Source of the DNA: a virus | Virus record (IMG/VR): IMGVR_UViG_3300047319_001872 | Span: 62,001-126,000 of that record | DNA length: 64,000 nucleotides | Reading direction: 5' to 3' (one strand) | In this document: one piece after another, positions 1 to 58,094 of the stretch | Layout: the number at the start of each line of letters is the position of its first letter | How positions within the stretch are numbered: position 1 is the stretch's first letter | The notes under the pieces: generated by a model | The model's input: the letters and a program-made list of their open reading frames with translations, nothing else | The model's database searches: none | Told to the model about the DNA's origin: nothing | Program-made: the position numbers and the translations under genes

Positions 1-1656
1 AAAGCGGTGGAAGAACACGGCAAGCTGAAGGAAAAGCAGGACTTGCTCAAGAAGACGGGGGCGCAAGGTGTCGATGCGCTGCTGCGTCGTCTGCACCTCG
101 CTCAGGAAACCCGCAACAAGGTCCTCTCAGGCCGCGTGCTGGGCTTGGAAGGCTTCAGTGCTACCCAGGCAGCGGGAGCACTCGAATCGGTCTACGGGGT
201 GCTCTTTGCGTGCTTCTCGGAGATCCCTTCGAATGAGGATCGGCGCTTCAGTCAGACCAAGAATAACGAGAACCGTCAAAAGGTGCTCGAGCGACGTGAC
301 CTGATCCTGCAAAAGGAAAAGGAGATTGCGCACTTCGCTGGTAAGAAGCAGCACATGGAGTCGCATAAGCAAGCCGGGAACATCGAGTGTCCGAAGTGTC
401 ATCACCTGTGGGTGATGGGCTATGATGCCGAAGTGATCCAGAAGTACGAGGCGGCGATTGAATCACGTGGCGAAGAGATCACCAAGCTGAAGGCCGAGAT
501 CAAGGCACTCGAAGAGGAGATGGAGGCGTTTCAGACCTACCTCAATCTCTACATGGACTTTAACCGCTGCGTGAAGAACTGGCCTGCACTGCAACCGTTC
601 TGGGATCACCTCTTACATCACGAGATGGTCATCAAGACGCCCCGCGTGGCCCTCATGCAACTCGATCTGCTTAAACAGGATCTGGTGCAAGAGCTCGCCG
701 CTGAGCGACAGGAACGGGAAATCGCTGACATCAAGGAACTCATCAAACAGGCTGAACAGCTCGGTGATGCGAACCTGAATGAGGTGACGGAGTCGTTGGT
801 CAAGGTAACGGGTACGGTCGAAGAGCTGACGGGTAAGCTGAACCGACTCAATAAGCACTTGCAGCAAACGATGGCCTACCGTCGCCAGATGTCGGACGTG
901 CAGGCCACTGGTCAGCGTTTGGAGCAGATGATCGGCCAAGCCGAAGAGGCCACCAAAGAACTGGTGGAGATGCTGCGGCGCGAAGCGATCCAAAATGCGA
1001 TCAATGCTTTGCAACTGTCGCTCGCCCACAAGAACTCGGCCTTGCAGGAGATGAAGCTCCAGAAGGGCATTATCGCTGAGCTGGAAAAGACGATTGCGCA
1101 GTATGCCTTGCGTGACGAAACCTTGAAGCTGATGGTCAAGGAGATGTCGCCCACGGATGGCTTGATTGCAGAAGGGCTGCTCGGCTTCATTCGGCGCTTT
1201 GTGCGCGAGATGAACCATCTCATCAAGAAGATTTGGGCCTATCCGCTGGAGATCCAGCCTTGTGGGGTGGCCACGGATCGTGGCGCAGAGCTCGACTATA
1301 AGTTCCCGCTGATGGTGCAGGACCGGGCGAACATTCGCGACGACGTCAAGAATGGCAGTAGCGGCATGCAGGAAGTCGTCGACCTCGCCTTTAAGGTGGT
1401 CGCCATGAAGTACCTGGGCTTGGGCGAAGCACCGCTCCTACTCGATGAGTTTGGCGCGAGCTTTGACCTGGAGCATCGCACCGCCGCATCGAGCTGTATT
1501 AAGAACCTGATGGATACACAGCACTTCTCGCAACTGTACATGATCTCGCACTACGAAAGTGGTTACGGATCGTTTACCAATGCGCAGACCTGTGTCTTGG
1601 ATGCCCGCAACATCACGGTACCGAGCGTGTACAATCAGCACGTCACTATGCAGTAA
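1..1656 (+). CDS. SbcC/Rad50/T4 gp46-like recombination nuclease ATPase subunit (5' end outside window)
   Basis: The reading frame is open from the first base, so this is the C-terminal part of a larger protein. It would form the ATPase and coiled-coil half of a Mre11-Rad50 type complex that processes DNA ends in recombination-dependent replication. About 120 residues in is a zinc-hook motif, CPKC, flanked by long charged coiled coils rich in Glu, Lys and Gln. Near the C-terminus are an ABC signature-like SSGMQE, a Walker B stretch LLLDEFGASFD containing the D-loop, and the H-loop histidine in MISHYES. These appear in the order expected for the family. The Walker A half must lie upstream of the window. 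The next gene starts 24 bases downstream behind a GAGGAAAG ribosome site. Family assignment is firm; the partner nuclease is not in the window. Confidence 0.88.
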   Translation, partial: KAVEEHGKLKEKQDLLKKTGAQGVDALLRRLHLAQETRNKVLSGRVLGLEGFSATQAAGALESVYGVLFACFSEIPSNEDRRFSQTKNNENRQKVLERRDLILQKEKEIAHFAGKKQHMESHKQAGNIECPKCHHLWVMGYDAEVIQKYEAAIESRGEEITKLKAEIKALEEEMEAFQTYLNLYMDFNRCVKNWPALQPFWDHLLHHEMVIKTPRVALMQLDLLKQDLVQELAAERQEREIADIKELIKQAEQLGDANLNEVTESLVKVTGTVEELTGKLNRLNKHLQQTMAYRRQMSDVQATGQRLEQMIGQAEEATKELVEMLRREAIQNAINALQLSLAHKNSALQEMKLQKGIIAELEKTIAQYALRDETLKLMVKEMSPTDGLIAEGLLGFIRRFVREMNHLIKKIWAYPLEIQPCGVATDRGAELDYKFPLMVQDRANIRDDVKNGSSGMQEVVDLAFKVVAMKYLGLGEAPLLLDEFGASFDLEHRTAASSCIKNLMDTQHFSQLYMISHYESGYGSFTNAQTCVLDARNITVPSVYNQHVTMQ

Positions 1657-56883: not shown

Positions 56884-57291
56884 CTTCCGACTATACTTAC
56901 CAGACAAGGTGGCCATCCCGACAAGTAAGCATACCCGGCTGCGCATTCCCAATCCGACGTAGACGCAGCGGCCGCGGTGAAAACCGCAGGCGCCACTAGG
57001 CGAACAAGTCTCGACGCGGGCCAGATGGCGCGCTACGACTCCGCGTCGGCACATCGGGTTACCCCGGTTACCAACGATTCGCGAAGAAGTGAGACTAGAC
57101 GCAGTATCGGTACTGGAAACAAACAACTTACTGGCGTTTGCGTCGCCAGTCGTACGATTCGTGGCACCCATCGCGCGCAAACGCGATTTCGACCACACGT
57201 AGGTACCTCCGCTAATCGTGAGTCACGGAGTCACAGGCGAAACTCGCCTGAATCTTGCTACTACAAATCGATTCACTCTAAATACGTGATG
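56884..57291 (-). ncRNA. Gene-free structured region downstream of the tRNA-like genes
   Basis: No protein gene on either strand. Inverted repeats are dense: CCGACG at 56954-56959 with CGTCGG at 57044-57049 closing a roughly 96-base domain; inside it GCGGT-GAAA-ACCGC and CGCC-ACTA-GGCG; then CTGGCG-TTTGCGT-CGCCAG at 57131-57149; CGCG-CAAA-CGCG near 57173; and AGGCGA-AAC-TCGCCT near 57234. On the minus strand part of the first domain (TTCGCCTAGTGGC) recalls a tRNA D-arm. The strand is uncertain; minus is inferred from the neighbouring RNA genes. It may be further tRNA-like RNA or degenerate remains. Confidence 0.4.
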
Positions 57292-57362
57292 TAGTCGGAC
57301 AGGTGTCGAACCTGTGTCTCCGGTGGTTTAGACCGACGTCAGTCCCGGCTGACCCCCGACTA
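57292..57362 (-). tRNA. tRNA or tRNA-like RNA with non-standard anticodon loop
   Basis: A complete cloverleaf: acceptor TAGTCGG/CCGACTA, D-arm GTCA/TGAC, anticodon stem TCGGT/ACCGG, T-arm ACAGG-TTCGACA-CCTGT. The anticodon loop is CTAAACC, formally anticodon AAA with C at position 37. AAA is rarely used and position 37 is normally a purine. No CCA is encoded. It may be a working Phe-type tRNA or an altered one like its neighbours. Confidence 0.6.
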
Positions 57363-57377
57363 CAGTACAACAAAACT

Positions 57378-57459
57378 TGGGTCCCGTGAGGGATTCGAAC
57401 CCCCGTTGTTCTCTTCACTCATCGTGAAGATAGGTCCTAGGCCACTAGACGAACAGGAC
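57378..57459 (-). tRNA. tRNA-like RNA with extended anticodon hairpin, no standard anticodon
   Basis: Acceptor GTCCTGT/ACGGGAC, Glu-like D-arm (TCGTCTAGTGGCCTAGGAC) and T-arm GGGGG-TTCGAAT-CCCTC are intact. Between them the anticodon arm is 6 bases longer than normal and folds as TCTTCAC-GATGA-GTGAAGA, a perfect 7-bp stem with a 5-base loop. No U33-anticodon arrangement can be drawn. It may be an inactive tRNA or a mimic. Confidence 0.6.
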
Positions 57460-57476
57460 ACGGTTACTACTAAAAT

Positions 57477-57602
57477 TGGTTCCGTCAGGTTGGTATCGAA
57501 CCAACGACCTCCGTCTGGTTGGTGAGTGGGAGAGTCCACCCTACCTGGCCGGTAGGTGGGCCCACTCGGGTGACGGCGCTCTACCAACTGAGCTACTGCG
57601 GA
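57477..57602 (-). tRNA. tRNA-like RNA with a roughly 57-base rod in place of the anticodon loop
   Basis: The 5' part reads TCCGCAG-TA-GCTC-AGTTGGTA-GAGC-G-CCGTC; the 3' part reads GACGG-AGGTC, then T-arm GTTGG-TTCGATA-CCAAC, CTGACGGA and ACCA (CCA encoded). The acceptor pairs as TCCG-CAG with CTG-A-CGGA, one bulged A. The anticodon stem CCGTC/GACGG is perfect, but 57 bases separate its halves where 7 are expected. These fold as a rod: GAGTGGG/CCCACTC, then CCACC-TACC with GGTA-G-GGTGG. No anticodon can be assigned. A splicing intron of a known type is not recognised. Confidence 0.65.
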
Positions 57603-57627
57603 CACTGAAGTACAACGGTAAAAAGGA

Positions 57628-57760
57628 TGGTTCCAAGCGACACGAATCGAACGTGTGACCTCCCGTCTGTGTATACCAACTCCACCACTTCCCCTAACGG
57701 GGAAGCCCGGATTCGAACCGGGGGAACTACGGGCACTCTTCCAAACTGAGCTACGCTGGA
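57628..57760 (-). tRNA. Double-headed tRNA-like RNA: two tRNA bodies sharing one anticodon helix
   Basis: Read on the minus strand in order: acceptor-A 5' TCCAGCG; D-arm A (GCTC-AGTTTGGAA-GAGT); CCCGT; variable loop and T-arm B (CCCGG-TTCGAAT-CCGGG); acceptor-B 3' CTTCCCC; loop GTTA; acceptor-B 5' GGGGAAG; Leu-like D-arm B (GTGGAGTTGGTATACAC); ACGGG; AGGTC and T-arm A (ACACG-TTCGATT-CGTGT); acceptor-A 3' CGCTTGGA and ACCA. CCCGT and ACGGG pair perfectly, so both bodies meet in a single 5-bp helix with no anticodon loop. Acceptor A has a bulged base like the neighbouring tRNA-like RNA. Each half alone would have mismatched acceptor ends. Confidence 0.7.
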
Positions 57761-57785
57761 CACTGATACAGCTACTACGAATTCT

Positions 57786-57861
57786 TGGCTCCCCAGGCTG
57801 GACTTGAACCAGCGACCAACGGATTAACAGTCCGCTACTCTACCAACTGAGCTACTAGGGA
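57786..57861 (-). tRNA. tRNA-Asn (anticodon GTT)
   Basis: Normal cloverleaf: acceptor TCCCTAG/CTGGGGA, D-arm GCTCAGTTGGTAGAGT, anticodon stem GCGGA/TCCGT with loop CTGTTAA, T-arm GCTGG-TTCAAGT-CCAGC, discriminator G and encoded CCA. Confidence 0.93.
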
Positions 57862-57881
57862 ATTGATGCGCATGCGAATGG

Positions 57882-57963
57882 TGGAGAAGGATGGATTCGA
57901 GCCATCGTAGGCAAAGCCAACAGATTTACAGTCTGCCCCCTTTAGCCGCTCGGGCACCTCTCC
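57882..57963 (-). tRNA. tRNA-Tyr (anticodon GTA)
   Basis: Class II tRNA with long variable arm: acceptor GGAGAGG/CTTCTCC, anticodon loop CTGTAAA, T-arm GATGG-CTCGAAT-CCATC. CCA is not encoded. All elements are standard. Confidence 0.93.
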
Positions 57964-57992
57964 GTCATGATGCATATACATACGGGTGAATC

Positions 57993-58068
57993 AGAGAGGG
58001 CGTTGAGGACACGCACGACGTTCACACAGGCTTCTGGTTAGGAAGCCTGCGCAAGCATCACCCTCTCT
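57993..58068 (-). ncRNA. Possible armless tRNA-like RNA at the head of the cluster
   Basis: 76 bases closed by AGAGAGGG/CCCTCTCT. On the minus strand it contains a mini D-like hairpin TGC-TTGC-GCA, a 7-bp/7-base anticodon-like arm AGGCTTC-CTAACCA-GAAGCCT and a weak T-like arm GCGT-GTCCTCA-ACGC lacking the TTC consensus. Length and order suit a degenerate tRNA. It could also be a leader hairpin or processing element. Confidence 0.45.
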
Positions 58069-58094
58069 AATACATGCTCAGACGCGGTAAAAAG

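What the first reader, a model, noticed from the sequence alone, without database searches (positions are those of the whole stretch)
57628..57760. Double-headed tRNA-like RNA: two full tRNA bodies fused through a single anticodon helix
Within 133 bases there are two acceptor stems, two D-arms and two T-arms, but arranged as A5', B3', B5', A3'. Acceptor B (GGGGAAG/CTTCCCC) is closed by a GTTA loop; acceptor A ends in ACCA. The two junctions, CCCGT and ACGGG, are exact complements, so both bodies meet in one 5-bp helix with no anticodon loop. GG in the D-loops and TTC in the T-loops are kept in both. Random decay of two tRNA genes would not preserve pairing between the two junctions. I know of no described RNA of this form. 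One hypothesis is a decoy or scaffold that offers tRNA bodies without a cleavable anticodon.
Basis: partly seen in the sequence, partly recalled or inferred. Interest (0 to 1): 0.92.

Follow-up and report, generated by a model that had tools for sequence, protein, structure and literature searches.

The report
Twin tRNA fused at the anticodon
Several unrelated groups of phages carry a conserved RNA in which two transfer-RNA bodies are joined through one shared stem where the decoding loops should be, so it cannot read codons and most likely serves as a tRNA look-alike that occupies some host protein.

Summary
Window 57628-57760 (minus) encodes a 133-nt RNA of order A5'-B3'-B5'-A3': two tRNA bodies with both acceptor, D- and T-arms, joined by one 5-bp anticodon helix and no anticodon loop. 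About 20 such units occur in three phage groups: jumbo phages near the window (including the isolate Burkholderia phage FLC9, two copies), a second unrelated group, and one further contig. In five second-group orthologs RNAalifold predicts exactly this fold: 42/42 pairs kept, 17 with compensatory changes, including three of five in the shared helix. In the window's own family the shared helix is always paired, with two compensated positions. The RNA is more conserved than neighbouring tRNAs and genes. Related bodies in the same arrays carry hairpins or 18-nt loops instead of a second body. All loop-replaced bodies also have an altered acceptor end (bulge in group 1, CCU in group 2); ordinary tRNAs beside them do not. 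Body B's 3' end is usually sealed by a short loop. These are dedicated non-translational tRNA mimics. Best guess: a decoy or competitor for a host factor that reads tRNA shape, possibly a tRNA-attacking antiphage defence; the target is unproven. No earlier description was found in Rfam or the held literature.

The parts
57754..57760 (-). acceptor A, 5' strand TCCAGCG
   Evidence: pairs with 57632-57639 with one bulged U; helix (82.9% of cells paired because the bulge register differs in L011/L054)
57735..57751 (-). D-arm A (GCTC AGTTTGGAA GAGT), GG kept
57729..57733 (-). shared anticodon helix, strand 1 (CCCGT)
   Evidence: 5/5 pairs in all 5 sequences, 2 pairs with changes on both sides
57706..57722 (-). 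T-arm of body B (CCCGG TTCGAAT CCGGG)
57699..57705 (-). acceptor B, 3' strand CTTCCCC
   Evidence: 2 pairs with changes on both sides; closing pair C-G in window, A-U in L013/L015
57695..57698 (-). hinge loop GTTA sealing acceptor B (GTAT, GTCT, TTCG, TTCTT in relatives; GCCATCTA in L054 keeps a discriminator+CCA)
57688..57694 (-). acceptor B, 5' strand GGGGAAG
57667..57687 (-). D-arm of body B, tRNA-Leu-like (TGGTGGAGTTGGTATACACAG)
57662..57666 (-). shared anticodon helix, strand 2 (ACGGG)
57640..57656 (-). T-arm of body A (ACACG TTCGATT CGTGT)
57632..57639 (-). acceptor A, 3' strand CGC-U-UGGA with bulged U at 57636
   Evidence: bulge in 15/15 loop-replaced bodies of group 1, 0/18 normal tRNAs
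57628..57631 (-). discriminator A + CCA
57477..57602 (-). sibling RNA: single tRNA body whose anticodon loop is replaced by a 56-nt hairpin domain; same acceptor bulge (TCCG-CAG/CUG-A-CGGA) and ACCA
   Evidence: 97.6-100% identical in L013/L015
57786..57861 (-). ordinary tRNA-Asn(GUU), comparison gene in the array
57879..57963 (-). ordinary tRNA-Tyr(GUA), comparison gene in the array

Best explanation
This is a dedicated phage non-coding RNA: two tRNA bodies (A, class-I-like; B, circularly permuted and tRNA-Leu-like) fused through one anticodon helix, made from the phage tRNA array. SHOWN comparatively: the fold, its conservation in several phage groups, no anticodon loop, an altered acceptor end in loop-replaced bodies, and a sealed B end in most units. 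INFERRED: the transcript is cut out of the array like a tRNA; it cannot be charged and used in translation; it accumulates as a stable mimic offering two tRNA elbow/acceptor-T surfaces, and it occupies a host protein that recognises tRNA shape rather than the anticodon (a tRNA-attacking antiphage effector, or a tRNA processing or quality-control enzyme), working as a decoy or competitive inhibitor that has no anticodon loop to cut. My confidence is about 0.95 for the conserved architecture, about 0.85 for a non-translational role, and about 0.4 for decoy/competitor as the function; the number below is for the whole statement.
For: Architecture; A2 count 42/42 pairs, 17 with both-side changes, 0/500 shuffles, slid controls 27-39% paired; RNAalifold finds the same fold unprompted; window family A5 13 pairs with both-side changes, shared helix 100% paired with 2 compensated pairs; covariance-model hit on the window from unrelated units. 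Constraint: double-headed RNA 95.5-97% and hairpin sibling 97.6-100% identical to L015/L013, while tRNA-Tyr is about 80%, tRNA-Asn 78% in L015 and found only as a 19-base match in L013, and flanking genes are 89-92% where found. Translation ends altered: 15/15 vs 0/18 acceptor bulge in group 1; 17/17 NCCU vs 0/8 in group 2. B sealed by short loops in most units. [quoted passage not shown]
Against: No transcript, no binding partner, no defence system or phage gene has been linked to it here; flanking genes have no informative Pfam match. The group-1 window unit keeps an encoded ACCA, so charging through body A is not strictly excluded. Siblings with hairpin or 18-nt inserts do not carry a second body, so the twin form itself may not be the essential feature. 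Orthologs are not independent, so counts overstate the number of events.
Confidence: 0.4

Rival explanations
1. Natural tRNA scaffold: the A body is a stabilising, self-processing frame into whose anticodon stem the phage inserts functional RNA domains (a permuted tRNA body, hairpins, an 18-nt conserved loop); the insert does the work.
For: The same A-type body carries very different inserts in the same arrays: permuted B, 32-66-nt hairpins, 18-nt loops with a conserved GCTNAACGAC-like core; engineered tRNA scaffolds work this way (PMC3753655, listed).
Against: Body B keeps tRNA features of its own (T-arm, GG in the D-loop) rather than an unrelated domain; a scaffold alone does not require altering the acceptor end.
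Confidence: 0.27
2. Precursor of functional tRNAs: B is a permuted tRNA inside A, and splicing or trimming releases decoding tRNAs, as for permuted tRNAs of algae and archaea.
For: B really is circularly permuted; L054 keeps discriminator+CCA after acceptor B; FLC9 encodes RtcB.
Against: No 7-nt anticodon loop can be built from either junction; hinges are mostly closed short loops; window, L011, L013, L015 and the second-group records have no RtcB match and no T4-type ligase match.
Confidence: 0.05
3. Double-ended aminoacylated RNA: both ends are charged (B by leucyl-tRNA synthetase, which does not read the anticodon) and used in a non-ribosomal reaction or as an amino-acid sink.
For: B is tRNA-Leu-like; window body A ends in ACCA.
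Against: B's 3' end is sealed in most units; A has a stem bulge in group 1 and ends in CCU in group 2.
Confidence: 0.06
4. Decayed remains of two recombined tRNA genes without function.
For: Not detected by standard tRNA finders; the arrangement could arise by recombination between anticodon stems.
Against: Compensatory changes in nearly every helix, higher conservation than real tRNAs, recurrence in unrelated phages.
Confidence: 0.02

Closest known systems
Canonical tRNA (Rfam RF00005)
   Same: acceptor, D- and T-arms with GG and TTCRA motifs in both bodies
   Different: no anticodon loop, two bodies sharing one anticodon helix, altered acceptor end; window unit below the Rfam gathering score
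Circularly permuted tRNA genes (algae, archaea; from general knowledge)
   Same: body B has its 3' half before its 5' half, joined at the acceptor ends
   Different: no anticodon, nested inside another tRNA, junction closed by a shared helix, no splice-site evidence
Dimeric tRNA misfolds (e.g. mutant human mitochondrial tRNA-Leu(UUR); PMC7357161)
   Same: two tRNA bodies in one complex
   Different: that dimer forms through the D-stem-loop of two molecules and is pathological; this is one genetically encoded, conserved chain joined at the anticodon
Phage tRNAs that offset tRNA-cleaving defences (T5, T6; PMC13096335)
   Same: phage tRNA arrays; possible decoy role
   Different: those are complete decoding tRNAs that can replace host tRNA; this one cannot decode
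Engineered tRNA scaffold (PMC3753655)
   Same: RNA inserted into the anticodon stem of a tRNA frame
   Different: natural, conserved, and the insert is itself a tRNA body
tmRNA
   Same: tRNA-like fold without an anticodon (also permuted in some bacteria, from general knowledge)
   Different: no tag reading frame, no pseudoknots, no tmRNA call

Membership tests
tRNA | D- and T-arms with elbow motifs | tested here: met
tRNA | 7-nt anticodon loop with anticodon | tested here: not met
   junctions are 5-bp helices without a loop
tRNA | unbroken 7-bp acceptor stem followed by NCCA | tested here: not met
   bulge in group 1; NCCU in group 2 (window keeps ACCA)
tRNA | Rfam tRNA model above gathering score | tested here: not met
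tRNA | aminoacylation | not testable with these tools
   needs an enzyme assay
permuted tRNA | 3' half precedes 5' half (body B) | tested here: met
permuted tRNA | joining of the halves restores an anticodon loop | tested here: not met
tmRNA | tmRNA model match | tested here: not met
phage anti-defence decoy RNA | binds or titrates a defence effector | not testable with these tools
   no binding data; the role is inferred
tRNA-scaffold RNA | tRNA frame with a domain in the anticodon stem | tested here: met

The most novel reading that the evidence does not exclude
A previously undescribed class of phage RNA, anticodon-less and translation-disabled tRNA mimics with a twin-headed form as its most striking member, has arisen or spread in at least three phage groups, and acts as a counter-defence decoy against host systems that attack or monitor tRNA.
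Probability: 0.35. Interest if true: 0.93.

Novelty: categorically new. Interest (0 to 1): 0.88.

Why it matters
No natural RNA with two tRNA bodies sharing one anticodon helix was found in Rfam or the held literature. It shows that phage tRNA arrays contain a hidden layer of conserved RNAs that are not for decoding, and it makes the open question of why phages carry tRNAs directly testable: several distinct anticodon-less bodies per genome can be deleted or expressed and challenged with tRNA-targeting defences.

Tried and rejected
Single-sequence folding is inconclusive. BLAST of the unit alone finds nothing in annotated phages. Broad patterns for a class-I D-arm in body B mostly return ordinary tandem tRNAs or anticodon-armless tRNA-likes. 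The R1 covariance model also scores ordinary single and tandem tRNAs at 40-65 bits, so it cannot by itself separate weak double-headed units. A scan of 84,980 bacterial and archaeal genomes with the tRNA-Leu-type pattern gave 11 hits, none double-headed; this pattern would miss units with a class-I B body. Tests for linked genes: RtcB only in FLC9 and BcepSauron (the latter has no double-headed unit in the stretch read), T4-type ligase only in BcepSauron, no CCA enzyme match; flanking window genes without informative Pfam matches. Descriptor hits in L014, L022, L060 and L073 looked like ordinary tRNAs with neighbours and were set aside.

Full report
What is there. The window lies in a jumbo phage record of 313,315 bases. 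On the minus strand, 57290-57963, is a tRNA array in which ARAGORN calls Tyr, Asn, a dubious His and a dubious Phe. Between Asn and the His-like gene lies the 133-nt finding. Read 5' to 3' it has acceptor A, D-arm A, CCCGT, T-arm B, acceptor B closed by GTTA, D-arm B, ACGGG, T-arm A, acceptor A and ACCA. Neither ARAGORN nor Rfam at gathering score reports it. Folding one sequence is not decisive.

Relatives. The isolate Burkholderia phage FLC9 has two such units, unannotated. A pattern using only T-loops, a D-loop and spacing, with no pairing requirement, was run over IMG/VR. Of 53 unique matches that could be scored, ten had a near-perfect acceptor B (6.5-7 of 7); each of those also had a 5-bp helix between the two junction regions and a recognisable acceptor A. 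A structural search of all fetched loci gave about 20 distinct units and none in shuffled sequence (the L014 and L073 hits there look like ordinary tRNAs with a neighbour). They fall in: group 1, jumbo phages (window, FLC9 x2, L011 x3, L013, L015, L054); group 2, phages for which no related annotated phage was found beyond single tRNA genes (L009/L025/L074, L017, L020/L030, L058), several units each; and L180, a 74-kb phage contig whose recombinase is closest to that of Streptococcus phage Dp-1.

Covariation. For five group-2 orthologs, RNAalifold returns the double-headed fold unprompted. All 210 cells pair, 17 of 42 pairs have changes on both sides against a shuffle mean of 5.9, and slid controls pair in only 27-39% of cells. 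Here both original anticodon stems survive, stacked end to end: the shared outer helix covaries at three of five pairs and the inner one at two of five. In the window's own family (window, L013, L015, L011, L054) the shared helix is paired in every sequence, with two compensated positions, and acceptor B has two compensated positions. A covariance model from the group-2 set finds the window unit at 78.8 bits.

Constraint. Against L015 and L013 the double-headed RNA is 95.5-97% identical and the hairpin sibling 97.6-100%, while tRNA-Tyr is about 80%, tRNA-Asn is 78% in L015 and reduced to a 19-base match in the L013 locus, and flanking genes are 89-92% where present. L013 thus keeps the double-headed and hairpin bodies while the Asn, His-like and Phe-like genes are not found in that locus.

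A wider family. The same arrays contain tRNA bodies whose anticodon loop is replaced by hairpins or by an 18-nt loop, and L011 and L054 show body B shrinking towards a hairpin. The acceptor end sorts them from ordinary tRNAs: in group 1, 15 of 15 loop-replaced bodies have a 1-2-nt bulge in the 3' acceptor strand and 0 of 18 ordinary tRNAs do; in group 2, 17 of 17 loop-replaced bodies end in NCCU and all 8 ordinary tRNAs scored end in NCCA. Orthologs are counted separately, so these are not independent events. In most units acceptor B is sealed by a short loop; L054 still has GCCA there, which suggests B once had a free end.

Mechanism. The RNA cannot decode, probably cannot be charged, and keeps the tRNA elbow twice. 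I infer a structural mimic that occupies a tRNA-binding host protein. Antiphage systems that cut tRNA, and phage tRNAs acting as 'decoy or supplement', are documented (PMC13096335), but nothing here links this RNA to any of them. The scaffold reading is the main rival. Precursor, double-charging and decay readings are less likely for the reasons given under rivals.

Novelty. Literature searches found no description of such an RNA; the library holds only open-licence papers, so absence is not proof. The pattern scan of bacterial and archaeal genomes found no tRNA-Leu-type unit.

Noticed in passing
window 57379-57459 (-): tRNA-like body called His(atg) whose anticodon arm is a 7-bp TCTTCAC/GTGAAGA hairpin with a 5-nt GATGA loop; 98.8% identical in L015, not found in the L013 locus.
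   Followed up: partly
window 57290-57363 (-): tRNA-like body called Phe(AAA) with pyrimidine at position 37 and no CCA after the acceptor; 98.6% identical in L015.
   Followed up: no
window 57965-58080 (-): Conserved structured element at the head of the array (AGAGAGGG...CCCTCTCT), also in FLC9 and L054; possible leader or processing RNA.
   Followed up: partly
window 57040-57260 (-): Conserved structured RNA after the array, shared with L015 and L054, with a compensated hairpin CTGGCGACGCAAACGCCAG / CTGGTGACGCAAACACCAG; no Rfam match at gathering score.
   Followed up: partly
window 57290-57790 and L005 1000-2100: Spacers between array units in group 1 repeat GTAGTAG-like motifs; group-2 units are followed by CCTATTC-like spacers.
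   Followed up: no
L009 8251-8338, L020 6186-6273, L058 8416-8504: tRNA bodies with an 18-nt anticodon loop sharing a GCTNAACGAC-like core; ARAGORN gives a two-letter anticodon for the L009 and L020 bodies.
   Followed up: partly
L093 1944-2001, L112 1565-1622, L163 11901-11958 and many loci: Widespread anticodon-armless tRNA-like RNAs in phage contigs (D-arm, about 12-nt linker, T-arm), hit by the Rfam tRNA model at 40-47 bits; one relative is annotated 'tRNA-OTHER' in Polaribacter phage Danklef.
   Followed up: partly
L010, L014, L018, L023, L026 and about 15 more loci: A recurrent tRNA-like RNA next to tRNAs in phage contigs that look marine (ACACATTACTTGCC...GTAGTGTGTTT with a T-arm), unlike the double-headed form.
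   Followed up: no
L141 about 454-600 (-), L078 and L083: Chains of T-arm, short hairpin (CGC-GAAA-GCG or TTAACC hinge), D-arm that look like further permuted or multi-headed tRNA-like RNAs.
   Followed up: partly
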